From Bacteroidales bacterium (GTDB lineage Bacteria; Bacteroidota; Bacteroidia; Bacteroidales; F082), in assembly GCA_017549805.1 (NCBI GenBank), contig JAFYNJ010000010.1, positions 92,437-156,436 on the forward strand: a stretch of 64,000 nt of DNA, written 5' to 3'. This document shows, in pieces, positions 1 to 10,213 of the stretch (position 1 is its first letter; the number at the start of each line of letters is the position of its first letter). The notes beneath the pieces are model-generated. The model did no database searches and was not told where the DNA came from. It was given only the letters and a program-made list of their open reading frames with translations. The translations under genes were made by a program, and so were the position numbers.

Positions 1-151
1 TCCACGTATGGAATGTGCGCTTGGGGATTTCGAGGCCCTCGCTCCTTTCGTCGTTGAGCCACAGTTCATTGATCTTCTCAAACGAGATGTATTTGTGTCT
101 GTAGATGGTATCGACCAGCCAGACGTATTTGTTCAAAAGACTCAGTGCCAT
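1..151 (-). CDS. WYL-domain transcriptional regulator, N-terminal part (cut by window edge)
   Basis: About 50 codons are visible, starting at the ATG at 151 and running off the left edge. The residues (MALSLLNKYVWLVDTIYR, then KYISFEKINELW and PKRTFHTW) match the N-terminal winged-helix part typical of Bacteroidales WYL-domain regulators; the WYL domain itself would lie outside the window. Such proteins are ligand-sensing DNA-binding regulators that often control defence islands (BrxR is an example). A perfect TATCTTTG -7 box lies at 169-176 and a palindrome shared with three other promoters of this island lies just upstream, so autoregulation is likely. The family assignment rests on the N-terminus only. 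Confidence 0.7.
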   Translation of the reverse strand, partial: MALSLLNKYVWLVDTIYRHKYISFEKINELWLNDERSEGLEIPKRTFHTW

Positions 152-188
152 AGTGATTGAGTTTTGTTGCTGCAAAGATAGCGAAAAC

Positions 189-212
189 ATGCGCCATACG
201 GAAGCACAAGTG
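189..212. promoter_or_regulatory. Shared palindromic operator, copy 1 (upstream of WYL regulator)
   Basis: Core gcgCCA-N6-AGCACAAG at 191-210, the most degenerate of four copies of the pattern cTTGTGCCA-N6-AGCACAAG. It sits 37 nt before the WYL start codon and immediately upstream of a TATCTTTG -7 box read on the minus strand. Same spacing (6 nt between CCA and AGC) as the other three copies. Confidence 0.65.
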
Positions 213-327
213 AAAAAAAGTGGTCAAAAAACCTTACTCCAATAGACCCAGCTCGTTTTGAATCAAAGGGACGTTATTGACAAACGACCGCATGTAGAGT
301 TTATAGTCCGATAACAAATAGAGAGTC

Positions 328-2553
328 TTAGAAGGATACACCAAAATAATCATCTATTTTGGGAACAATCTGATTGACAAGTCGTACGCCATATTCAACG
401 CGGTCTTCCATATCTATTCCATTTTCATCCATAAATGGTTTTTCAGATGGAAGAGGATATTCTTCGATGGCATATTCTTCATTATCTTCAACAGATCGCC
501 TATACAATACAAATTTGTCATTCAAGCAATCCAAGGACAACTCATCAGAAATATGTAGCTTGTCTCCATATTCTCCTAAAGTATAGGTGTTGTTGGTTGC
601 ATTGTGTATTGCCAAATTAAAGACGTTCCAATGGCGGCCGTTCAATCTTTCGGCGGTGTGCATTTTCAAAGTGTGGAAAATGCCATCTTTAAATGAGTAA
701 TACATGCCGTATGTATCAGATAGCATTTCAGGATACTTGACAAAATAATAACGCCAATTCAGCTCAACTTCAGGATTAGCAAGATAACCTTCTATTACCT
801 CTTCAAGAACATAGTCGCTGAAGACATCTATACTACTGAGCATAGCGTTTAGAACAGCTTTCGTATTTTCAAAGCCTTTACGCTTATTGGAGGGATGGAA
901 CAGGTCTTGCCAGGTAGATAAATTCCTTTCGTTAGAGGTGCCCATTTGCCAACGCCAATCCAGAGATTGAGAATAGTCACCATAAGACAGTAAAGCCCTA
1001 GAAATGGACTGCTTGCTGCAATTATTAAATAGCTCTCTGAATTTCTTGAAGTTCTCAGGATGTTCAAGACCCACCACGGACACACAACCATAAAGCAAAT
1101 TATGGTCCTCCAAATGGAACAACTCATCGCTGTATTGAGGGTTATAAATAAGCCAATCCTCTTTGGCCATCTCCTCCTCTCTTTGCTTTTGATTGTAAGC
1201 TCCAGTATGTGGAATTACGCCAGTAAGCATTATTTCCTTTGTTTCTTGAAGCAGCATCGGCATGTTATTGCGCTGCGCATCGGCACGAATCTCGTCACTA
1301 GAATTCATTATCAAGTTGCGGATGATACGAATCCTTCTTTGGAAACCAGTTTCCGTTATGCTTTCCTTGTTTTCCAAATAAACCAATACAGCATACAACA
1401 GCAAGGTCTTATACAATGGGAATTTTCTTCTTCTGCTATCCAAATACTCGCCATAATCATCACAGCATTGCTTGAAGAGGTTGATGGTGTCTTGAACAAT
1501 GTTTGGCGAAATCTTGGTTTTGCCAGATTGATAAACATTGCCTGAGAAATGTTTATCGAAAAACTCATCAATATCAAATCCGCACCAGCAATCAAAAGCA
1601 TTCTTCAAGAAAACAAGGTTGTCATGTGCTTCGGGATTTTCTTTTCCATAAAGGGACTTTGCCAGTTTAAATTCATCTGACTCAAGAGATTTTCCCTTTT
1701 GGTAGTACAACAAATCGCTAACGAAGCGAAAATAACGCATGAACTCTTCGTCGATGATGTTGTTGTCGCCTCGATATGGGAAAAGCATGTCGGTCCAGTT
1801 TAAGTCAAATTTCTTGTTGATTTCATTGGAAATATCGACATCATATTCCCTGATCATGCCTTCAAACTCTGCCTTGAAATGCTCGAAAGGGGTGAGTGGT
1901 TTGCCACGAGAGTTCATTTTGATATACAACTCATCTGTCAATCCCATTTCCGTTATGGGAAGGAAATAGAATGTCACACATTGGTCATCGACGAGCTTTT
2001 GCCAAAGATTTGTTACTGCGTTGAACTTTGCATGGATGGCATCTATCATCACCAACATACCGTTGATAGTTGGGTCATTCAGCCATTGATACTGAAACCA
2101 GGACTGATTGACGATTTCCTCTGAAATTGTACAATTGAATTCTGGTGAATGCTCAACAAATCTTTCACAGAAAACACGGGAGCTAGGCCGAGTGTAATAT
2201 GTGAATTTCTTAAGGAAGGCACATTTTTCCTCAGAGATGCACTCTTTTTTACTAGCATACCAATGAAGCAGGAACATAGTGGTTAGCCGCTGCTGACCAT
2301 CGAGAGGAATTAGTTTGCCGTTCTCAATTTCACCATAGACAAAATCAAGTGTAAGGTGGTGGTTATTATTAACGGCATCCAATATGGTGTCGAGAAAGCG
2401 TTCCCTTACACGAGAAACTGCATCGTTTTTGCGACCCTGGGCATAATCTCTCTGTATGATTGGGATTTCGATTTCCTTGATTTCAAATTGCTTTCCGTCA
2501 GAAGCAGTATGTTTCCCAAATAAGCTGCAAAATGAATATTCGTTAATGTTCAT
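328..2553 (-). CDS. DUF262-domain protein (GmrSD/ParB-Srx-like), second gene of a DUF262 pair
   Basis: A 741-residue protein with the DUF262 signature in the N-terminal part: IPIIQRDYAQGR near residue 35, then LIPLDGQQRLTTMFLLHW near residue 85, then IKMNSRGKPLTPFEHFK near 220. In GmrSD and BrxU type IV restriction enzymes this domain binds and hydrolyses nucleotides, with the DGQQR motif central to activity. The long C-terminal part has no clear DUF1524 nuclease motif; FHLEDHNLLYG near residue 505 is a possible degenerate one. The start at 2553 is preferred over 2571 because AAAGGAG lies just upstream of it. It overlaps the upstream DUF262 gene by 11 bp, so the two are translationally coupled. 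Probable antiphage function, substrate unknown. Confidence 0.75.
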   Translation of the reverse strand: MNINEYSFCSLFGKHTASDGKQFEIKEIEIPIIQRDYAQGRKNDAVSRVRERFLDTILDAVNNNHHLTLDFVYGEIENGKLIPLDGQQRLTTMFLLHWYASKKECISEEKCAFLKKFTYYTRPSSRVFCERFVEHSPEFNCTISEEIVNQSWFQYQWLNDPTINGMLVMIDAIHAKFNAVTNLWQKLVDDQCVTFYFLPITEMGLTDELYIKMNSRGKPLTPFEHFKAEFEGMIREYDVDISNEINKKFDLNWTDMLFPYRGDNNIIDEEFMRYFRFVSDLLYYQKGKSLESDEFKLAKSLYGKENPEAHDNLVFLKNAFDCWCGFDIDEFFDKHFSGNVYQSGKTKISPNIVQDTINLFKQCCDDYGEYLDSRRRKFPLYKTLLLYAVLVYLENKESITETGFQRRIRIIRNLIMNSSDEIRADAQRNNMPMLLQETKEIMLTGVIPHTGAYNQKQREEEMAKEDWLIYNPQYSDELFHLEDHNLLYGCVSVVGLEHPENFKKFRELFNNCSKQSISRALLSYGDYSQSLDWRWQMGTSNERNLSTWQDLFHPSNKRKGFENTKAVLNAMLSSIDVFSDYVLEEVIEGYLANPEVELNWRYYFVKYPEMLSDTYGMYYSFKDGIFHTLKMHTAERLNGRHWNVFNLAIHNATNNTYTLGEYGDKLHISDELSLDCLNDKFVLYRRSVEDNEEYAIEEYPLPSEKPFMDENGIDMEDRVEYGVRLVNQIVPKIDDYFGVSF

Positions 2554-4249
2554 CGTAAATCTCCTTTCCAATAATAGATAAATAAGGTTTCAGCACTTCA
2601 TTCATTGCCTTCATGTATGCTTTCCTATCTTCTTCACCCCAAAAATGCAATTGGTTCTTATCTGATGGCGTGTAATACTTCAGGAATACTCGCCTTGTAC
2701 AAATTGGGATATAGTCACCTTGCTTGTCCATCTCCAAGATTCTGTCCCGCTTGACATCAAACGTAGAATTATTCAAGGCTGAGTTGTCGAACTTGCCAAG
2801 TAAGGCCATATTTTCAATTGCATCGATGTAATCAAGGGTTTTCTCAAACTCCAAGGCTTCAATCACTTTTTTGAACAGCTCTTCAAATTGTTCACCAGTG
2901 ATTTTTTCATCACGCTGTTCGATTTCTGAAATAAGTTCAGCGTATTTCACAGCATCAATGTTTCGCAATGATGCAACGTGCAAGTCGAGCCATTCGTTCC
3001 ATTGCTCCTGTTTGTTCAAACCTTGCGATTGTTGAGCATGGATGTGTTCAAGAGACCAACCACCAGCTTGTTTCTTGTGCTTGTCAAATGGGAAACGCAT
3101 AGATTTGTCGCCGTTTTGTCTGACACTTTCCACATTGAAAAGCAGTAACAGCTTTTCAATATCGTTATAATCGTTAGTATAGGATAATTCTTGGAAGTCT
3201 TTCTTGAAGCTTATGCTGTCAGCAATGTATTTGTCTAATGTGCTTCTATAAGCCGTTTTACTCATCGATGAGGACTTGCTTTTCAATTCAAAAAGCGTTT
3301 CTTGACTTGAAGCGATGATATAGCCGATTTTATGATACAATTCTGGATCCTTGTACCATTCTTTCAGCCTTTGATAGTTTTCAATAACTTGTTCCCAGAG
3401 ATTGATTTTCTTATTCTTGAAATCTTCTGACTTGACCTTATCCATGAACCAGAAAAACGTGCAAAGCCTTTCTCTATCATCATCAGCTTTGTTGGCCATC
3501 AAATCGAAAAGCAGCTCGATTTTGGTAGGATATTTGTCAGCTTTCTTGTTAGTGATGAAATACCAAAAACCATCATCGTGCAACTCGTTTTCAATAGTGT
3601 CCCACTGGGTAGAGATTTCCAGCTGGTAACGTTCGTCCACTCCATTGTTACGACTTAGGAAGATAGCTTTCACAAGTTCGGCATTTGTCAATGGAATTTT
3701 ACCGATGTTGAGGCGGGTAAATAGAGAGATTGCATCTTCGTTGCTGTCAATCTCGTACCAAATAACACTAACCTTGTTGTTGAGCTTGTCAGCCATGAGG
3801 CTTGCAGCGTTGTCGGCATCTGATGTGTTTTCAAACCATGTTTTTATGGTTTTAGCAGCTTCATTTATGAAGTATTCATCAATGTTATCGGCTTTGTCAG
3901 ACACATTGTCGAAATCAATGTCGGAAAGGAATTGCTTACTGTCTTTCCTTATTTCATAATCTATTGTGTACTTGACTTTAAGTTTTGGACGATACGTTCT
4001 GATGTAACTTAATATCAAAAACAGGGTTGTAAGCCTTTGTTGACCGTCAATCAATTCAAACCTATTGTCGTCAAGTTTCTTGACAACAATAGGCTGCAGG
4101 CAATAATTGGTACCTTCGGGAATCTCCGACAAGTCATCAAGCAACATCTTTACTTCTTCATTCCAGCGATAGCCTCTTTGATAAGCTGGAATAATAAAGT
4201 CGCCTTCTAATTCGCCAACAAGTTTAGTGTCTAATTCAATGTTATTCAT
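2543..4249 (-). CDS. DUF262-DUF1524 protein (GmrSD-type nuclease)
   Basis: This 568-residue protein has both halves of a GmrSD-type enzyme. The N-terminal DUF262 part has FIIPAYQRGYRWNE (about residues 18-31) and FELIDGQQRLTTLFL (about 64-78). The C-terminal DUF1524 part has GGWSLEHIHAQQ (about residue 395), the His-Me/HNH-like motif, followed by LRNIDA where the family has a GNLTLL-like segment. Known relatives cut DNA carrying modified bases or phosphorothioates in an NTP-dependent way. It lies 34 bp downstream of the membrane/EVE-like gene and overlaps the second DUF262 gene, forming an operon. The modification sensed, if any, cannot be read from the sequence. Confidence 0.8.
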   Translation of the reverse strand: MNNIELDTKLVGELEGDFIIPAYQRGYRWNEEVKMLLDDLSEIPEGTNYCLQPIVVKKLDDNRFELIDGQQRLTTLFLILSYIRTYRPKLKVKYTIDYEIRKDSKQFLSDIDFDNVSDKADNIDEYFINEAAKTIKTWFENTSDADNAASLMADKLNNKVSVIWYEIDSNEDAISLFTRLNIGKIPLTNAELVKAIFLSRNNGVDERYQLEISTQWDTIENELHDDGFWYFITNKKADKYPTKIELLFDLMANKADDDRERLCTFFWFMDKVKSEDFKNKKINLWEQVIENYQRLKEWYKDPELYHKIGYIIASSQETLFELKSKSSSMSKTAYRSTLDKYIADSISFKKDFQELSYTNDYNDIEKLLLLFNVESVRQNGDKSMRFPFDKHKKQAGGWSLEHIHAQQSQGLNKQEQWNEWLDLHVASLRNIDAVKYAELISEIEQRDEKITGEQFEELFKKVIEALEFEKTLDYIDAIENMALLGKFDNSALNNSTFDVKRDRILEMDKQGDYIPICTRRVFLKYYTPSDKNQLHFWGEEDRKAYMKAMNEVLKPYLSIIGKEIYDEH

Positions 4250-4283
4250 AATGTTTTAGCTGCTAAAAACCAAGCATTCGTTG

Positions 4284-5600
4284 CTATTTCCAATTACCGT
4301 TCTCGTCTATTTCTGCAGGCTTTATGTCACCGCTCTTAAGCAATTCTATGAATTTCTTTTTATTGCAGCCCATTTTGACAGTCGTTTCACCATCAAAATG
4401 AACGTCATAATTATTAGGATCATTCATGATGGCCATGAATCTTGCCAATTGCATTAAACCATATCCATGATCATAGCGCGAAATGGTACGACGATATACA
4501 CCACCAGGATTGCCTATGCCATTTTTTGCAAACGCCAACGGCTCCACTATTAGACTTGAACAAAAATCTGCGCCATCTTCCCTTGAATGATAGATGTCAC
4601 TTCGTTTTAAGTCATTCAATATGCGCGTTTTATCTGTAATTGTTTCTTCATTTTTTCCAATTTTTATCGTCTCAACAACTTTGTCTCCTTCTAAAAATTG
4701 AAACACGCGCCAACCAAGGATACGATAAACGCCCATATAGCCAAATCCTCCAGAGCGAAATAAGAATACTAAATCATTCTCCTTTACTTGCTTTATTAGA
4801 TTCGTCCTCCATTCTTCTTCGTATTCTATAAGATTCAATTCATATACCCCGTTGCGTAAAGCTGCAATTTGTTCATTTGCACCCAACATGGCAAAATGCC
4901 AAAAACCGCAGTTCAGGGTTTGTGTTGTAGTTGATGCCGTCTCTGGATTAACTTTCTCTTCATTCATGGCAACTGTAGGTTTGTCAGGAATTGCTCCGTT
5001 TTCACGGGGTTGGACTCCAAAGTAATTCCACAGTCGGCTGATTTCTTGTTTGGCTTCAGTTTGCTCATTATTATTAACGTCAGCACGTAGCAATTCTGTA
5101 ATCTCTGAAAAGCATTCAATAATACTAGTGGTTTTCTTTGCTTTGTCAATGGCTTTATCTTCTCCATCGTTGTAACTATCTGAACTCTTTATACTTCTGA
5201 CTTTTTCGCCAAGTTTGATTATATCATCCTTTTTAAGATAAAAAATCAACTTATTGAAAATGTCGGAACGAATTCCACGAATTTCTTCGTCGGTAATTAC
5301 GTCGTCTTCCAAGGTTTTCCACATTTTGGATATGAATTCAGAATACACTTGTATCTTGTTCTCATAAACCTTGATGTTCTTTTCCTTGGCTTCTTCGGAT
5401 TCCTGCTGGTTTTTAAGCAATGTATTCGTAATAAAAGCAGTAGCACCAACGCCCAAAAAAGCACTTGTGATTATTGCCAATAGTTGTGACCAAAAATCAG
5501 GTAAATGAAACACGAAAAAACAAATCGCCAAGATAGCTGTGATGATACCTAAAACAAGAAAAATTGATGCGATATTGGATAGTAATTGCCTCTTCTTCAT
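4284..5600 (-). CDS. Membrane-anchored protein with C-terminal EVE/PUA-like domain
   Basis: Two hydrophobic segments (about residues 10-32 and 37-60) are followed by a charged helical region (65-195), a low-complexity linker (200-228) and a globular domain (231-390). That domain contains GFWHFAMLG, then DLVFLFRSGGFGYMGVYRIL, a pattern resembling EVE/PUA-like folds (EVE domains read modified bases), but the match is by eye only. A short basic C-terminal tail follows. It lies between the Asp-box gene (18 bp upstream) and the DUF262-DUF1524 gene (34 bp downstream), so it is probably the sensor or membrane anchor of the same system. The alternative is an unrelated beta-barrel domain. Confidence 0.5.
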   Translation of the reverse strand: MKKRQLLSNIASIFLVLGIITAILAICFFVFHLPDFWSQLLAIITSAFLGVGATAFITNTLLKNQQESEEAKEKNIKVYENKIQVYSEFISKMWKTLEDDVITDEEIRGIRSDIFNKLIFYLKKDDIIKLGEKVRSIKSSDSYNDGEDKAIDKAKKTTSIIECFSEITELLRADVNNNEQTEAKQEISRLWNYFGVQPRENGAIPDKPTVAMNEEKVNPETASTTTQTLNCGFWHFAMLGANEQIAALRNGVYELNLIEYEEEWRTNLIKQVKENDLVFLFRSGGFGYMGVYRILGWRVFQFLEGDKVVETIKIGKNEETITDKTRILNDLKRSDIYHSREDGADFCSSLIVEPLAFAKNGIGNPGGVYRRTISRYDHGYGLMQLARFMAIMNDPNNYDVHFDGETTVKMGCNKKKFIELLKSGDIKPAEIDENGNWK

Positions 5601-5618
5601 TGCATTAGTTTTTGCTGA

Positions 5619-5960
5619 TTATCTTCTCTTAAACCATGACCTTCCACTATCGGTCGAGTAATATAATCCTTTGCTGGTGTTGGCAAGGAGCTCTCTACCT
5701 CCATCAGCAAGGTTTTGAAACACGCCGCAATTTGTCCCAGTGTGTCTAGTAAACCATGAGCGGCCATTGTCGCGGGAATAATAAATGCCCTTTGTGGTTA
5801 CGGCAAGTAGCTCACTGCCGTATGGCAAAAGGTCAATGAATGTTCCGCAATTGGAAGTAGAGCAGCGCGTAAACCAAGAACGTCCGCCATCGGTGGAGTA
5901 CTGTATTCCTTTTGGAGAGATAGCAAGCATCTCTTTTCCGTAGTTAATTAGTTGTGGCAT
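5619..5960 (-). CDS. Small Asp-box (BNR) repeat protein
   Basis: This 113-residue protein is made almost wholly of three repeats of about 38 residues, each ending in an Asp box: YSTDGGRSWFTR, YSRDNGRSWFTR and YSTDSGRSWFKR, preceded by G-x-E-(L/M)-LA. Asp boxes normally cap beta-hairpins in sialidase-like and Vps10-like propellers; three are too few for a full propeller, so it may oligomerise or form part of a complex. There is no signal peptide. It is the first gene of the leftward four-gene cassette, 18 bp before the membrane/EVE-like gene. Function unknown. Confidence 0.7.
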   Translation of the reverse strand: MPQLINYGKEMLAISPKGIQYSTDGGRSWFTRCSTSNCGTFIDLLPYGSELLAVTTKGIYYSRDNGRSWFTRHTGTNCGVFQNLADGGRELLANTSKGLYYSTDSGRSWFKRR

Positions 5961-6002
5961 AATAATTCAATTTGTTATACAATTATTTTGGCTTTAGTAT
6001 TT

Positions 6003-6014
6003 GCTGCAAAGATA
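6003..6014 (-). promoter_or_regulatory. Promoter of the Asp-box/EVE/DUF262 operon
   Basis: Read on the minus strand this is CTATCTTTGCAGC, a perfect TAnnTTTG -7 box about 45 bp upstream of the start codon at 5960. The shared TTGTGCC palindrome of the neighbouring genes is absent here, so this operon appears to be controlled separately. Confidence 0.55.
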
Positions 6015-6051
6015 GTTAAAAATCATTCTAATTTGTTTCCGCAAAAAAACA

Positions 6052-6079
6052 GCAAGCCTATGCCGCGGCATAGGCTTGC
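6052..6079 (-). terminator. Rho-independent terminator of the WDW-repeat gene
   Basis: A perfect 28-bp palindrome (left arm GCAAGCCTATGCCG) lies 7 bp past the stop codon at 6086. Read on the minus strand it is followed by TGTTTTTTT. The stem is unusually long and has no loop. Confidence 0.8.
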
Positions 6080-6085
6080 GAATCG

Positions 6086-6619
6086 TTAAGCTTTCAGGAG
6101 CATTTCCTTTTTGATGGCATTGGCCTCTTCATCAATGATTTCGCTCCAAAGTGCGGATTCTTCCAATTCGTTTACCGGGATTCTGTCTTGGTAGCGTTTC
6201 AGAAAACCAAAAGAAAAAGCATTGTTGTCACTGTCCCAACGACGCCATTGTATGATAGCACTCCAGTCCCACCTGTCGATGTATTTATCCAACAGCTCGT
6301 AAGTGAGTTTCAAACTGCTGTTTCCACTCAATTCCGTCCAATCCCATTTGTCCTTGAATTGTTCGATGATTTCATCATACAATAGTTTTTCGTCAACGCT
6401 TCCTGAAAACACTTTCCAGTCAATGAGGTTGGCGAAATCCTTGATCAATTCGGGTGTCCAATTGATGCTGGAGTTCCTCGACACCTTTGACCAATCGAGT
6501 TCGTGATGGTGCAATTTCATCATTTCCCTGGTCAAAGGATAGTCTTCTGAGATACGCTCCATAGCTTCTTTGCGGATTTGCTTTTTCAGCAAAAAATCTT
6601 GCATGTTGTTCGTTTCCAT
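6086..6619 (-). CDS. WDW-repeat protein of unknown function
   Basis: This 177-residue soluble protein has degenerate repeats of the type LDWSKVSRNSSINWTPELI, IDWKVFSGS, WDWTELSGNSSLKLTYELL and WDWSAII. Such dW-x-x-(l/i)-S-x-N repeats occur in many Bacteroidales hypothetical proteins and probably form a helical solenoid; no catalytic motif is visible. It is preceded 65 nt upstream by the palindrome shared with the WYL, AAA+ and PLD units, and followed by a strong terminator, so it is monocistronic but co-regulated with them. Function unknown. Confidence 0.7.
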   Translation of the reverse strand: METNNMQDFLLKKQIRKEAMERISEDYPLTREMMKLHHHELDWSKVSRNSSINWTPELIKDFANLIDWKVFSGSVDEKLLYDEIIEQFKDKWDWTELSGNSSLKLTYELLDKYIDRWDWSAIIQWRRWDSDNNAFSFGFLKRYQDRIPVNELEESALWSEIIDEEANAIKKEMLLKA

Positions 6620-6684
6620 GATTGTTTTGTTTTAATTGTGAATACTCGGTTCATTTTGATTTCTGATGCAAAGAAAAAGTGATC

Positions 6685-6706
6685 CTGTGCCAAATTACAG
6701 CACAAG
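6685..6706. promoter_or_regulatory. Shared palindromic operator, copy 2 (upstream of WDW-repeat gene)
   Basis: cTGTGCCA-N6-AGCACAAG. On the minus strand it is followed by TTTTTCTTTG, a weak -7 box in the position that copy 1 has TATCTTTG. Nearly the same layout as copy 4. Confidence 0.75.
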
Positions 6707-6736
6707 CTTGATAATCTTTGCATTGTTCATTTAGCA

Positions 6737-8398
6737 TTATCTAAAACCAATGTTACGGCTTTCCTTCTGCTTCAACCGCTCATTGTCGCAATGTGCCATC
6801 AGTGTGTCGAGTGTAAGGCTGTCGTCGCCGTGCAGGATGCCATCGATGGCTTGGTGGCGGGCAACGTTCTCAATTTGGCCTCCGCTGAAGTCGTATTTCT
6901 CCGCCAAGGCGCGGATGTCGGTTTCGGTCAATGAGGGGAGCATCTCGTGCCAGATGCTCATGCGCGCCTCCAACGAGGGTTTGTTGAACTTGATCTTGTA
7001 AAGGAAACGGCGCTCAAAAGCCTTATCCATGTTTTGTGCAAGGTTGGTGGTGGCGATGAGGATGCCGTTAAGGGTCTCCATCTCTTGAAGGATGATGTTC
7101 TGTATGGAGTTCTCCATCTTGTCCACGGCACGCTCCGCACCTTCCTGGCGCTTACCGATGATGGCATCAGCTTCGTTGAAAAGCAGGATGGGCGTGATGG
7201 CCGCTTTTTCAACTATCGCGCGATACTTATCGAAGATCTCTTTGATGTTCTTTTCACTTTCGCCCACCCACATGCTCTTGATTTGCGAAATGTTGACCTG
7301 CATGATGTCACGCCCCGACTGACGGGCCAACTGTAGCACAGTCTCGGTCTTGCCCGTGCCGTGCGCGCCGTAGAACAAGCAGGTGAATCCCGTCCGATGG
7401 CCTTTTGATTCCAAACGGCTGCAAATGTCACGATAATGTGTTTTCTCCAACAATTGGCCCAAATCCTTTACCTGAGCGGCAACGCTTTCGTCATAATAGA
7501 GTTGTTTTGCAACAATCTCTTCGTGTTTGACGACATCTTTTCTGTCTTTTTCCCGGTCCATTGAAGCCAAATGAAGCTCTGAAAACAGTTCTTCTTTTGC
7601 TCTCCAAGTCATCCGAAACGAGTCGTTTCTTGCAAAACCGTCGTCGTTGTTGAATTCGATCATTTTCTCTTCCAGCAAAGTGTTGTAATTGTTGACAAGG
7701 CTTCTCTTGGTGAGGCTCCAATCAAATTGATCGTCATAGAAGAACTCCAAATCATAATAGCAGATGTTGTCGTCACCATTGTTTACGAAAAGATGAGAAA
7801 ACAGAAACAACAAAACCCAATCGTCTTCTTCATAATCCAAGCTTAAAAACTTTTGGACGAAGACCAAATGCTTGTTGTTGTCGAGCAACGCCTTTAACAT
7901 AATTACAACCGCCTCGGTACTTAATTCATCGTTTTTGCGCATTTCCATTATTTCGCATACGACACCAAACAGTTTTGAGCATGTCAAATCAAAATACTCT
8001 CGTGGAGTGTATTTTTCGTTGTGTTTGAATGCTTCCACCACATCCATCGGAACCCTGTATGAAACGTTGCGTCGTCTATTACGACTGCACAGGACAAACC
8101 CTTTGCGTACCAGTTCGTCCACGTCGTTCATGGAGCGAATGATTCTTGTTGTGCTGCACTGGAAATGCTTTGCAAAATCGCTAATAGTGATGCTTGAGTT
8201 TTCGCTGTTGTCGATGAAAAGTGCCAACATCAAGCTTTGCTCCTTGGTGAGTTCCATCTTTTCGGAGATAAACTTCAAGGGTTTGGCAGCTTTTTTGAAG
8301 AACTCTTCATCGAGATGAGATTCTTTTGAGAGTTCGACGACCTGCTCCACAGCGGTTAACAGATCCAGTTTGTGGGTTGTTCTTTTTTTCGTTTCCAT
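6737..8398 (-). CDS. AAA+ ATPase with N-terminal winged-helix region
   Basis: This 553-residue protein has a C-terminal AAA+ module: Walker A GAHGTGKT (344-351), Walker B LLFNEAD (405-411), sensor 1 ATTN (449-452), arginine finger FERRF (461-465) and sensor 2 GGQIEN (506-511). This resembles FtsH/Vps4-type ATPases, though the Walker B Asp is replaced by Asn, as seen in some Bacteroidota relatives. Residues 50-120 look like a winged helix (ITISDFAKHFQCSTTRIIRS, then an RNRRR basic patch); residues 130-330 are helical. A remodeller that binds DNA or another partner is plausible. It has its own promoter with palindrome copy 3. No protease or nuclease domain is attached, so partners are likely the co-regulated genes. 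Confidence 0.85.
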   Translation of the reverse strand: METKKRTTHKLDLLTAVEQVVELSKESHLDEEFFKKAAKPLKFISEKMELTKEQSLMLALFIDNSENSSITISDFAKHFQCSTTRIIRSMNDVDELVRKGFVLCSRNRRRNVSYRVPMDVVEAFKHNEKYTPREYFDLTCSKLFGVVCEIMEMRKNDELSTEAVVIMLKALLDNNKHLVFVQKFLSLDYEEDDWVLLFLFSHLFVNNGDDNICYYDLEFFYDDQFDWSLTKRSLVNNYNTLLEEKMIEFNNDDGFARNDSFRMTWRAKEELFSELHLASMDREKDRKDVVKHEEIVAKQLYYDESVAAQVKDLGQLLEKTHYRDICSRLESKGHRTGFTCLFYGAHGTGKTETVLQLARQSGRDIMQVNISQIKSMWVGESEKNIKEIFDKYRAIVEKAAITPILLFNEADAIIGKRQEGAERAVDKMENSIQNIILQEMETLNGILIATTNLAQNMDKAFERRFLYKIKFNKPSLEARMSIWHEMLPSLTETDIRALAEKYDFSGGQIENVARHQAIDGILHGDDSLTLDTLMAHCDNERLKQKESRNIGFR

Positions 8399-8442
8399 GA
8401 TGTTTTCCTTTTATGGTTGAATCATGCTGCGAAAAAAACAAT

Positions 8443-8469
8443 AACTTGTGCCATTTTGTAGCACAAGTT
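8443..8469. promoter_or_regulatory. Shared palindromic operator, copy 3 (upstream of AAA+ gene)
   Basis: The most symmetrical copy: AACTTGTGC(c) at the left, GCACAAGTT at the right, 9-bp perfect arms in a 27-bp site. It ends 44 nt before the AAA+ start codon at 8398 and 57 nt after the PLD gene stop. Confidence 0.85.
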
Positions 8470-8525
8470 AAAAAAGAATCAAAAAAATGTGCAAGTTTTT
8501 TGCAGAAGATGAAAAACAAAGGGGG

Positions 8526-9089
8526 TTATGCGACCGGATCGGAACAGAATTCTCTCCGTTTACAGGTTTTGCAATGCCGGCCAATCCACACATCATCGAA
8601 TTGGTTCATGGCTTGCTCAACCAATTCGAGATCGTCGGTAAGGATGCCCGTCTCAAAATTGCGAGTGTCCTCCCCTTTCATCCCGATGCCTGCACCAGTG
8701 AGATTGGCGCTGCCGATGTAAGCTACTTGACCATCGAAGACCAATATCTTGAAATGCACTCTCGGACAGAGCACTCGTTCAAGACCGTCAAACAAAGCTG
8801 GGTATTTGTCGAAGTCCTCACGAAAAGCGGGACCCGGTTCTTTGGCGTGGATAAGACGAACTTCCACTCCTTTCTTGATCAGCTGTGCCAAAACCGCAAG
8901 GAATGGCTTTGTCTCTGAGCCAACTTTGACATAAAGGTCTTTGATGTCGGCAGTGCCAATCCACAAGCTTCGCTTGACCTTGGGAACGCGGGCGAGGACT
9001 TCGGAATAATGGGCGGTATCAACGATGTATTTCAACATGCAAGCGGATTTATTCCAGTTTGATTGCAAAGATAAAACTTTCTTTTTCAT
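8526..9089 (-). CDS. Phospholipase D-like nuclease, single HKD motif
   Basis: This 187-residue protein has one complete HKD signature: VHFKILVFDGQVAYIGSANL (about residues 111-130), i.e. HxK-x4-D-x6-GSxN, followed by NFETGI. Single-HKD proteins of this size (Nuc/BfiI-like) act as dimers and cut DNA or RNA. A Cys-rich tail, CKTCKRREFC, could bind a metal. The gene starts directly after the stop of the upstream gene (adjacent codons), so the two are in one operon under palindrome copy 4. The start could also be the internal Met at about codon 18. Likely the effector nuclease of the co-regulated group; this role is inferred. Confidence 0.8.
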   Translation of the reverse strand: MKKKVLSLQSNWNKSACMLKYIVDTAHYSEVLARVPKVKRSLWIGTADIKDLYVKVGSETKPFLAVLAQLIKKGVEVRLIHAKEPGPAFREDFDKYPALFDGLERVLCPRVHFKILVFDGQVAYIGSANLTGAGIGMKGEDTRNFETGILTDDLELVEQAMNQFDDVWIGRHCKTCKRREFCSDPVA

Positions 9090-9647
9090 TCACCACAAAC
9101 TCCTCCCACACCTCCACCATATCTCAGATCTCCTGAAATACTGGCTCGGCGACTCCTGGGGATGAGTACGCCAATGGTGACGTTCAATGCGGTCGAGATA
9201 TACATCGCTCAGCCATTCGGTGTCAGATAGAAGTTCCCAATGCTCGCAAATGTTGTTGTGCTCATCAAAATGACAGCTTTGCACCACATCGCGTTTCAGT
9301 TCGGCGGTGAGCAGCCTTATCAATTCATCTTTGTTCAGGCACTTGATGCGATCAACCAAAGGCTCGGAGCCATACCATTGCAATCGGTTGCCAACCATGA
9401 GTTTCAGAATGTAGTACAACACGCAATATTGGATGCGGCAGTTGTAGCGTTCATCGTGGTCTTTGGCATAGCGGTTAATCACTTTCTTGAGGTTGCCACC
9501 TTGCTGGACAAATCCAGCCAACCGTCCCAGCTTTTTCTCTATCGTGCTCCAGCTCCATTCGGCACCAAGATCGTCCCAATACTCGCGGCTGTTCATCATT
9601 CCCTCGTAATCGCGCAGGGAAACTTTTAAAGGCACATTGTAAGTCAT
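9090..9647 (-). CDS. Conserved hypothetical protein, partner of PLD nuclease
   Basis: A 185-residue soluble protein rich in Trp, Arg and His, with no recognised motif (segments include YNCRIQYCVLYYILKLM and SEIWWRCGRSLW). An upstream in-frame ATG at 9764 is rejected because it would run through the operator; the start at 9647 lies 41 nt after the palindrome and starts MTYNVPLKV. It is immediately followed by the PLD gene, so it may be a regulator, specificity factor or inhibitor of that nuclease. I do not recognise the family. Confidence 0.65.
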   Translation of the reverse strand: MTYNVPLKVSLRDYEGMMNSREYWDDLGAEWSWSTIEKKLGRLAGFVQQGGNLKKVINRYAKDHDERYNCRIQYCVLYYILKLMVGNRLQWYGSEPLVDRIKCLNKDELIRLLTAELKRDVVQSCHFDEHNNICEHWELLSDTEWLSDVYLDRIERHHWRTHPQESPSQYFRRSEIWWRCGRSLW

Positions 9648-9688
9648 CTTTGTAACGTTTTTTTGGTTTGCGCTACAAAGAAAAAGAG

Positions 9689-9713
9689 AACTTGTGCCAA
9701 ATTGAAGCACAAG
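9689..9713. promoter_or_regulatory. Shared palindromic operator, copy 4 (upstream of PLD operon)
   Basis: aaCTTGTGCCA-N6-AGCACAAG, ending 41 nt before the start at 9647. The minus-strand sequence after it, TTTTTCTTTG, is the same as after copy 2. It also lies about 15 bp from the end of the toxin gene. Confidence 0.85.
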
Positions 9714-9726
9714 CTGCAAATTGGAT

Positions 9727-10035
9727 TTAATATGCCATCGTTTTTGAAGGTAGTATTCTGTCAATGATCACAAAATCTTCTTCTGTATGGAACACTACCG
9801 TCCAGCGACGATGGATAATAAGCATAGTCTTTGCCTGGGGATGAATTCTTTTGGCTGATCTTTTTTGGGAATAAGGGAAAACGTCAGCGCAATAGGACAA
9901 CGAATCCAACTTTTCCAATATCCGATCCACAAAGCCATGTCCACTTTCTGGTCGATAAATGGAAGCCACGTATTGAGCTATTTCCCTTAAATCAGTCAAT
10001 GCTTCACGAGCAACTATCACTTCGTAACTCCGCAT
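9727..10035 (-). CDS. ParE/RelE-family toxin
   Basis: This 102-residue protein has the ParE pattern: VIVAREALTDLREIAQYVAS at the N-terminus (helical hairpin) and a beta-rich C-terminus with YSQKRSAKRI, MLIIHRRWTVVFHTEED and IIDRILPSKT. ParE toxins inhibit gyrase, RelE toxins cut mRNA; the sequence alone does not say which. The start at 10035 (MRSYEV) is preferred to 10071; it leaves a 32-bp overlap with the antitoxin gene, the usual arrangement for such pairs. Confidence 0.8.
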   Translation of the reverse strand: MRSYEVIVAREALTDLREIAQYVASIYRPESGHGFVDRILEKLDSLSYCADVFPYSQKRSAKRIHPQAKTMLIIHRRWTVVFHTEEDFVIIDRILPSKTMAY

Positions 10036-10213
10036 AACACTCGTCGAGTTTTTGGTGAAACAATTCTCCAAATTGGCTAAGGGTCAAATAACCCTTCGGG
10101 ATTTCACTTGACGGTTCAATTTGTATCGCGGAAGATTGTTGCATTTCCCCATAGACAGCAACAGGCTCTGACACTATGCTATCAGTTTTCTCATGTTGGT
10201 CGTATGGTTTCAT
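10004..10213 (-). CDS. Antitoxin of the ParE-type pair
   Basis: A 69-residue acidic protein upstream of and overlapping the toxin gene. The N-terminal half is low complexity; the C-terminal half, GYLTLSQFGELFHQKLDECY, resembles the toxin-binding helices of Bacteroidales ParE antitoxins. No DNA-binding domain is evident at this length, so autoregulation may be absent or need the toxin. Identification rests on gene order and the C-terminal helix. Confidence 0.65.
   Translation of the reverse strand: MKPYDQHEKTDSIVSEPVAVYGEMQQSSAIQIEPSSEIPKGYLTLSQFGELFHQKLDECYAELRSDSCS

What the first reader, a model, noticed from the sequence alone, without database searches (positions are those of the whole stretch)
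1..9713. Undescribed regulon: one palindrome before four transcription units, including the WYL regulator gene
Sites at 189-212, 6685-6706, 8443-8469 and 9689-9713 share cTTGTGCCA-N6-AGCACAAG with constant spacing, and each lies 37-65 nt before a start codon on the minus strand: WYL regulator, WDW-repeat protein, winged-helix AAA+ ATPase, and an unknown protein plus PLD nuclease. The WYL gene carries the most degenerate copy, as expected for autoregulation. The genes are unlinked by function otherwise, so a shared regulator implies one programme, likely defence or stress. The intervening DUF262 cassette lacks the site.
Basis: partly seen in the sequence, partly recalled or inferred. Interest (0 to 1): 0.85.

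Follow-up and report, generated by a model that had tools for sequence, protein, structure and literature searches.

The report
WYL-controlled array of defence gene cassettes
Beside one regulator gene, some gut Bacteroidales keep a changing row of defence-like genes, and most units in the row begin with the same DNA switch, so a single regulator probably controls a whole swappable arsenal.

Summary
The four palindromes are real: CTTGTGC-N9-GCACAAG with 2, 1, 0 and 0 mismatches. The genome's three best matches all lie within 3.1 kb here. Each sits at a gene junction, at a fixed distance from a -7-box position.

The window is a small case of something larger. Palindrome plus promoter occurs in 56 of 99 same-genus genomes, up to ten times each, with no reversed-control hits. 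Copies form same-strand arrays next to a WYL gene. All four window units recur behind such sites in other species. WYL and sites co-occur: 49 of 57 against 7 of 42 genomes. In Prevotella-type genomes the site before WYL and sites before some of the same target families carry a shared, different sequence. That is the best evidence that WYL is the binder.

Best reading: a WYL regulon over exchangeable defence-like cassettes, more likely activated (DriD-like) than repressed. The site also resembles a terminator for the preceding cassette. A sister species lacks a cassette block, with the junction inside a palindrome. Binding, sign, signal and defence remain inferred.

The parts
1..151 (-). 5' end of the WYL-WCX regulator gene (304 aa; continues outside the window as L016:15674-16437), followed there by an overlapping RNase_T/DEDDh 3'-5' exonuclease gene (L016:15183-15677)
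   Evidence: Pfam WYL 2.5e-13, WCX 1.1e-11, RNase_T 2.9e-17
188..210 (-). Site 1, operator-like palindrome before WYL (2 mismatches), then TATCTTTG as -7 box
   Evidence: same place in other WYL genes
328..2553 (-). DUF262/GmrSD_N protein (second of pair), no site of its own
   Evidence: Pfam GmrSD_N 2.6e-22
2543..4249 (-). DUF262/GmrSD protein (first of pair), PADLOC HEC-06-like
   Evidence: GmrSD_N 6.2e-33; HEC-06 1.5e-26
4284..5600 (-). Membrane-anchored 438-aa protein, weakly 8xMP-like
   Evidence: 8xMP 8.3e-4, below curated cut-off; 25% identical to L088:9338-10747
5619..5960 (-). BNR/Asp-box repeat protein; no palindrome before it in the window; its homologue in L088 has a 1-mismatch site
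6052..6079 (-). Terminator-like hairpin behind the WDW gene (separate from the sites)
6086..6619 (-). WDW-repeat protein, unknown function (family F12)
   Evidence: No Pfam or NCBIfam hit; F12 members stand behind a site in 5 other array stretches
6684..6706 (-). Site 2 (1 mismatch), then TTTCTTTG
6737..8398 (-). AAA+ ATPase, IetA/TRIP13-like C-terminal half (family F4)
   Evidence: Pfam AAA 1.1e-23; PADLOC IetA 7.2e-29; F4 behind a site in 8 other stretches
8445..8467 (-). Site 3 (0 mismatches), then TTTTTTCG
8526..9089 (-). PLD-family nuclease-like protein (family F5), DrmC-like
   Evidence: PLDc_2 2.1e-14; DrmC 2.6e-8
9090..9647 (-). Unknown protein heading the PLD unit (family F8)
   Evidence: No Pfam, PADLOC or NCBIfam hit; F8 behind a site in 6 other stretches
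9691..9713 (-). Site 4 (0 mismatches), then TTTCTTTG

Best explanation
The palindromes are operators of the neighbouring WYL-WCX regulator. It controls its own gene and a row of defence-like cassettes, each carrying its own operator-promoter module: palindrome, 7 nt, -7 box. I think the regulator most likely acts like Caulobacter DriD: a dimer binds the palindrome, which covers the -33 region at a fixed distance from the -7 box, and recruits RNA polymerase when its WYL domain senses a nucleic-acid signal of damage or infection. As RNA, the palindrome with its T run would also end the transcript of the preceding cassette, so every cassette is insulated and separately switched. Cassettes are gained and lost as units. 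Shown: sites, spacing, arrays, association with WYL, recurrence of the same cassettes behind sites, parallel sequence change in Prevotella-type genomes. Inferred: binding by WYL, activation rather than repression, the signal, terminator activity, and phage defence.
For: (1) 56 of 99 genus genomes carry TGTGC-N9-GCACA-N9/10-TWNNTTTG, 0 reversed-control hits. (2) WYL homologue present: 49 of 57 have sites; absent: 7 of 42. (3) Around 80 WYL genes, 40 sites on the WYL strand, 0 on the other, 39 of 40 upstream of WYL, 0 control. (4) In 20 selected array stretches, 72 of 91 sites have a start codon 50-171 nt behind them; all four window units recur. (5) A matrix trained only on the 39-nt module before WYL in 28 Prevotella-type loci finds 10 further copies in 9 of those loci (scores 12.7-29.6, shuffle maximum -3.1); members of families F2, F12 and F4 follow such copies. 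(6) Nearest solved structures by profile: PafBC 4.6e-13 and DriD 1.4e-12; CapW 0.05 and BrxR 0.58. (7) DriD sites all lie the same distance from -10, overlap -35, and include driD itself and the recJ exonuclease gene (passages, PMC12340889). (8) Hairpin -18.3 kcal/mol for the consensus, z -5.6; the eight top-ranked terminator-like hits of L083 are array sites.
Against: No binding or expression data. BrxR and CapW, the WYL regulators known from defence loci, are repressors. Of the arginines used for ssDNA in PafB/SiwR/DriD, the middle one of R-x-x-R-L-x-R is Ala or Ser here (alignments), so the ligand may differ. 8 of 57 genomes with WYL lack the strict site and 7 of 42 without a detected homologue have one. 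Terminator-like sites in total are not clearly above shuffles: 23 against 17.1 +/- 3.6 in L083, 9 against 8.5 +/- 3.6 in the window; window site 1 folds weakly (z -1.7). The module spacing is partly built into the search patterns.
Confidence: 0.62

Rival explanations
1. Same regulon, opposite sign: the WYL protein is a BrxR/CapW-type repressor. It sits on the palindrome, blocks RNA polymerase at every cassette and at its own gene, and is released by an infection or damage signal.
For: The palindrome overlaps the -33 region, a classic repressor position. Defence-linked WYL regulators BrxR and CapW repress; BrxR binds two inverted-repeat boxes in one island (passages, PMC9122601). Toxic cassettes would need silencing.
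Against: Profile similarity is to DriD/PafBC activators and not to BrxR/CapW. The operator keeps a fixed phase to the -7 box and no -33 TTTG is apparent at the expected place, but the -33 motif is not found in all Bacteroidota (passage, PMC7366714).
Confidence: 0.28
2. The palindromes are bound by another factor, or serve only as intercassette terminators; the WYL gene is merely one cassette of the array.
For: Strong hairpin with T run; top terminator hits in L083 are the sites. Seven genomes without a detected WYL homologue have sites, for example G021 with three, although its array contig ends 0.9 kb after the last site.
Against: Conservation continues through the -7 box. Prevotella-type WYL genes carry the module alone and as poor hairpins, yet at constant length (28 of 28 modules are 39 nt, the pattern allowed about +/-1). 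The target sites there share the altered left half CCTCTGCC with the WYL site.
Confidence: 0.08
3. Chance resemblance or a dispersed repeat without regulatory meaning.
For: At up to 3 mismatches the motif is near background in the window and genome. Exact arms occur inside genes in five other genus genomes (L018-L022).
Against: Zero reversed-control hits in 99 genomes against 193 sites; clustering, strand and downstream families.
Confidence: 0.02

Closest known systems
DriD regulon of Caulobacter (WYL activator)
   Same: WYL-WCX protein, pseudo-palindromic site of about 20 bp at a constant distance from the -10 box and overlapping -35, several promoters including its own, an exonuclease gene in the regulon (passages, PMC12340889)
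   Different: DriD targets are repair and division genes and the paper describes no cassette array; here targets are a changing row of defence-like cassettes beside the regulator
BrxR / CapW regulators of defence islands
   Same: WYL regulator encoded in a defence locus, inverted-repeat boxes (two in the BrxR island; passages, PMC9122601)
   Different: Only weak profile similarity (CapW 0.05, BrxR 0.58); one operator per cassette and up to ten per genome here
RptR-controlled defence island
   Same: One small regulator and repeated binding sites for a defence island (abstract and outline, PMC12255303)
   Different: Sites are repeats within one promoter; RptR is described as a novel repressor binding TAGCTA
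Integron cassette arrays
   Same: Same-strand array of exchangeable cassettes bounded by short palindromic repeats next to an anchor gene
   Different: Integron cassettes are mostly promoterless and move by an integrase (abstract in listing, PMC11014356); here each cassette carries a promoter and no integrase was seen among the 25 Pfam families shown of 42

Membership tests
WYL-domain transcription regulators | WYL domain with WCX extension | tested here: met
   PF13280 2.5e-13 and PF25583 1.1e-11, both above the curated cut-off
WYL-domain transcription regulators | N-terminal winged HTH DNA-binding domain | tested here: inconclusive
DriD/PafBC-type activators | Sequence similarity across WYL and WCX | tested here: met
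   Profile hits over positions 118-294, 1.4e-12 to DriD chain 7u02
DriD/PafBC-type activators | ssDNA-binding arginines | tested here: inconclusive
   First and last arginine of R-I-Y-x-L-D-R invariant in 15 sequences, middle one Ala/Ser
DriD/PafBC-type activators | Activation of transcription on ssDNA binding | not testable with these tools
   Needs protein and RNA polymerase
BrxR/CapW repressors | Sequence membership in the BrxR/CapW group | tested here: not met
   CapW 0.051 and 0.12, BrxR 0.58, WYL domain only
BrxR/CapW repressors | Repression of the defence operon | not testable with these tools
   No expression data
Integron | Integron integrase beside the array | tested here: inconclusive
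   None among the 25 of 42 Pfam families shown for 52 array protein families; 17 families were not shown and no intI search was run
Integron | Promoterless cassettes | tested here: not met
   Each site is followed by a -7-like box before the first gene

The most novel reading that the evidence does not exclude
An integron-like cassette platform without an integrase: one 43-nt module works at once as operator, promoter, terminator of the preceding cassette and recombination junction, so any defence cassette that enters by crossing over in the module is automatically insulated and placed under the resident WYL regulator. The co-encoded 3'-5' exonuclease may trim or remove the single-stranded ligand, or take part in the exchange.
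Probability: 0.3. Interest if true: 0.88.

Novelty: new variant of a known kind. Interest (0 to 1): 0.78.

Why it matters
How a defence island keeps many different, partly toxic systems under one control while its content turns over is an open question. Here control is carried by the cassette itself: a newcomer brings or acquires the common operator and joins the regulon on arrival. If the operator is also the exchange point, gene acquisition and regulation are one step. The arrays also give a direct list of candidate defence genes (families F2, F4, F8, F12, F18 and others, mostly unnamed) that can be found simply by their operator, and a natural test of regulator-operator co-evolution across genera.

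Tried and rejected
Exact CTTGTGC-N9-GCACAAG as a genus-wide probe failed to show the regulon: 7 of 99 genomes had it, and outside G000 and G026 the five hits lie inside genes. The genus uses mostly CCTGTGC-N9-GCACAGG, so the looser module pattern was used.

Arrays in viruses: an exact, rather strict module pattern gave 0 in viral contigs. Arrays outside the genus: 7 of 295 order genomes, own genome included, with one hit each except the own (pattern slightly stricter).

Automatic per-locus probes often chose the wrong TTTG and were replaced by a trained matrix for the Prevotella-type clade. That matrix also gave three weak hits that I do not count (L164 twice, -0.2 and 2.9; L166 minus strand, -1.0).

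Alignment-block ends: 84 of 230 left ends lie within 30 nt of a site in both sequences against 0.3 expected. The control weakens this: blocks also break at siteless gene junctions (135 ends, 68 crossings) though less than at sites (218 ends, 57 crossings); distinct junctions 31 of 91 against 61 of 95. So sites are favoured boundaries, not the only ones.

The co-occurrence table was first made without the 64%-identical WYL fragment of G043 and corrected. Setting eight genomes with an atypical palindrome centre to zero leaves 43 of 57 against 5 of 42.

Literature: the ten searches listed no WYL-controlled cassette array; the library lacks most subscription papers.

Full report
1. Observation. 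The four sites are present on the minus strand at 188-210, 6684-6706, 8445-8467 and 9691-9713. Two are perfect CTTGTGC-N9-GCACAAG, one has 1 mismatch, and the WYL site has 2. In the own genome (2,730,596 bases, 33 contigs) there are only three places with at most 1 mismatch, all here, against 0.44 expected. With up to 3 mismatches the motif is close to background, so the case rests on the good copies, on position and on comparison.

2. Anatomy. Each site lies in a gene junction and 36-64 nt before an ATG. The distance from the palindrome to an 8-nt -7-box position is the same in all four (7 nt after the 23-nt core). The consensus TAnnTTTG is from a passage of PMC7366714. Site 1 has a perfect box, sites 2 and 4 TTTCTTTG, site 3 a poor one. 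The WYL gene runs out of the window; its full form is 304 aa with WYL and WCX domains and is followed, overlapping, by an RNase_T-type 3'-5' exonuclease gene. The exonuclease is directly downstream of WYL in 52 of 80 loci examined; some of the other 28 loci end soon after WYL.

3. The window is a small case of a larger array. Some WYL homologues of about 55% identity carry TGTGC-N9-GCACA 62-64 nt before their start, followed by TATCTTTG or a near form (L028, L030, L033, L039, L041, L048, L050 of 30 loci). The derived pattern TGTGC-N9-GCACA-N9/10-TWNNTTTG is found in 56 of 99 same-genus genomes, 193 times by the row counts, with no match of the reversed control. The largest count is 10 in G070, all on one 20-kb stretch ending at a WYL gene. 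Around 80 WYL genes from named genomes there are 40 such sites in 19 loci: all 40 on the WYL strand, 39 upstream of WYL (the exception is L150), 0 control. Across the order only 7 of 295 genomes, the own included, have the pattern. The genus is probably that of bacterium F082, now Candidatus Alcium: G004 contig C65 has the length and WYL position of LPNG01000003.1.

4. What the arrays hold. I fetched 20 stretches from 17 genomes, chosen because they had sites, so they are not a random sample. They hold 91 sites with at most 1 mismatch; 72 have a start codon 50-171 nt behind them. The families right behind a site include every unit of the window: WYL (7), WDW protein F12 (5), AAA+ F4 (8), unknown F8 (6), PLD F5 (3). 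Modules in front of the same family in different genomes are more alike (0.854, 125 pairs) than modules of different families in different genomes (0.761, 2284 pairs) or in the same genome (0.770, 145 pairs), so the module travels with its cassette. The 160 array proteins of 100 aa or more fall into 52 families. Of these, 10 have GmrSD_N (DUF262), 4 PDDEXK_4, 4 GmrSD_C, and single ones match Nmad2, Nmad3, bpMoxR, RhuM plus Fic, a tubulin/FtsZ GTPase domain, FtsK, HAD_SAK_2 and others (25 of 42 Pfam families shown). PADLOC models hit include HEC-06, Orf5, SspE, PDC-S26, PDC-S23, IetA and DrmC. Many cassette proteins, among them F2, F8, F12 and F18, have no Pfam hit. This is defence-like content by similarity only.

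5. Why WYL. First, co-occurrence: 49 of 57 genomes with a WYL homologue of at least 53% identity (fragments included) have sites, against 7 of 42 others, p = 2e-12, not corrected for kinship. Second, WYL genes of other clades carry a diverged palindrome at the same place even when alone. Third, parallel change: in 28 Prevotella-type loci the module before WYL reads about ACCTCTGCCACAGTTTGGCGTACCCTTGTCATACTTTTG. A matrix trained on these 28 alone finds 10 more copies in 9 of the 28 loci, downstream of WYL, reading about ACCTCTGCCACCAGTTGGCGGAGGTCTTTGTTTTCTTTG. In 23 of those genomes that second form occurs 9 times in 8 genomes, 0 control. Of the nine, five stand before F2 or F12 homologues, one before a weak F29 match and three before no matching gene; the AAA+ family F4 follows one further copy, in L165, at 58-59% identity. 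Two copies precede a DnaE-like gene (L142, L170; identity judged by eye). So the same target families are addressed by a different operator where the WYL site is different. The right halves of WYL and target sites differ in Prevotella-type genomes (GGCGTACC against GGCGGAGG), so the match is of half-site and frame, not letter for letter.

6. Sign of control. The profile of 36 WYL proteins hits PafBC (4.6e-13) and DriD (1.4e-12) far better than CapW (0.05) or BrxR (0.58). DriD is an ssDNA-activated activator whose sites lie at one fixed distance from -10 and overlap -35; recJ, an exonuclease gene, is a target, and driD has a site too (passages of PMC12340889). PafBC replaces the -35 contact of sigma (passages of PMC11804915). 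In the array stretches, 73 of the 162 palindrome orientations (81 palindromes) have a TWNNTTTG box 9 or 10 nt behind the inner arm, and other distances occur once each; the loci were chosen with a pattern that favours this. A fixed phase fits an activator somewhat better than a repressor. The middle arginine of the ssDNA patch is not kept, which counts against the same ligand (residue matching is mine).

7. The site as terminator and junction. As RNA the consensus folds into a 12-bp hairpin at -18.3 kcal/mol, z -5.6; window sites 4, 3, 2 and 1 give -13.0, -15.0, -10.9 and -7.9 with z -5.0, -4.9, -2.4 and -1.7. In L083 the eight top-ranked terminator-like hits are array sites, although the total, 23, is only somewhat above shuffles, 17.1 +/- 3.6. 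Alignment blocks between arrays start within 30 nt of a site in both sequences in 84 of 230 cases against 0.3 expected, but siteless junctions also break. The sharpest case is the sister genome G026 (WYL 97% identical). There the AAA+, WDW and BNR-to-DUF262 units are missing between PLD and WYL. The 50 nt before its WYL palindrome match the window's site 3 flank (39 of 50 ungapped; 25-28 for the other sites), and the 50 nt after it match site 1 (49 of 50; 27 for the others). So one junction lies inside the palindrome. G026 (93% complete) has no close AAA+ copy elsewhere: its best is 35% identical. Gain in one or loss in the other cannot be told, and this is a single event.

8. Verdict. A real, conserved WYL-linked regulon over an exchangeable cassette array. 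It works like DriD by inference and like an integron in layout, but is a member of neither on present tests. Regulated promoters, WYL control of defence islands and cassette arrays are known kinds; an operator carried by each cassette of a WYL-anchored defence array was not found in the ten literature searches made.

Noticed in passing
L018-L022, position 1501 in each: In five other same-genus genomes exact CTTGTGC-N9-GCACAAG lies inside genes, read through in frame (for example as LCQIMAQ or LVQYFGTS); whether this is chance or a coding repeat is unexplained.
   Followed up: partly
G007:C75, G061:C45, G063:C7, G072:C3 (loci L054, L081, L082 and one search list): A second palindrome type, TGTGCAA-N5-TTGCACA-like before TAnnTTTG, occurs in pairs in several genomes and may mark another regulon.
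   Followed up: no
L190, L191, L193-L196, L198: In another group of the genus, WYL and exonuclease close an operon behind one CATGTGC...GCACATG-like site; the genes between a constant first gene (238 aa) and WYL differ from genome to genome (Nmad2 plus Nmad3, or single unknown genes), a swappable slot inside an operon.
   Followed up: partly
L100:2771-3460 and related (family F20): A cassette encodes a tubulin/FtsZ GTPase domain of 230 aa (Pfam 1e-29), shorter than FtsZ and below the ftsZ equivalog cut-off.
   Followed up: no
L097:3270-4235 (family F9): A RhuM plus Fic protein (PADLOC PDC-S23, 4e-142) stands directly before WYL behind one shared site in several genomes.
   Followed up: no
L083:3036, 11122, 14896: The 73-aa DUF6140-like gene (family F6) occurs three times in one array, in three different cassettes.
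   Followed up: no
window 9727-10071: An ORF upstream of site 4 looks like a RelE/ParE-type toxin by eye; not tested.
   Followed up: no
L142 +8330 and L170 +4452 relative to WYL: Prevotella-type operator copies stand before a DnaE-like PHP-domain gene (identified by eye), suggesting a polymerase in the regulon.
   Followed up: no
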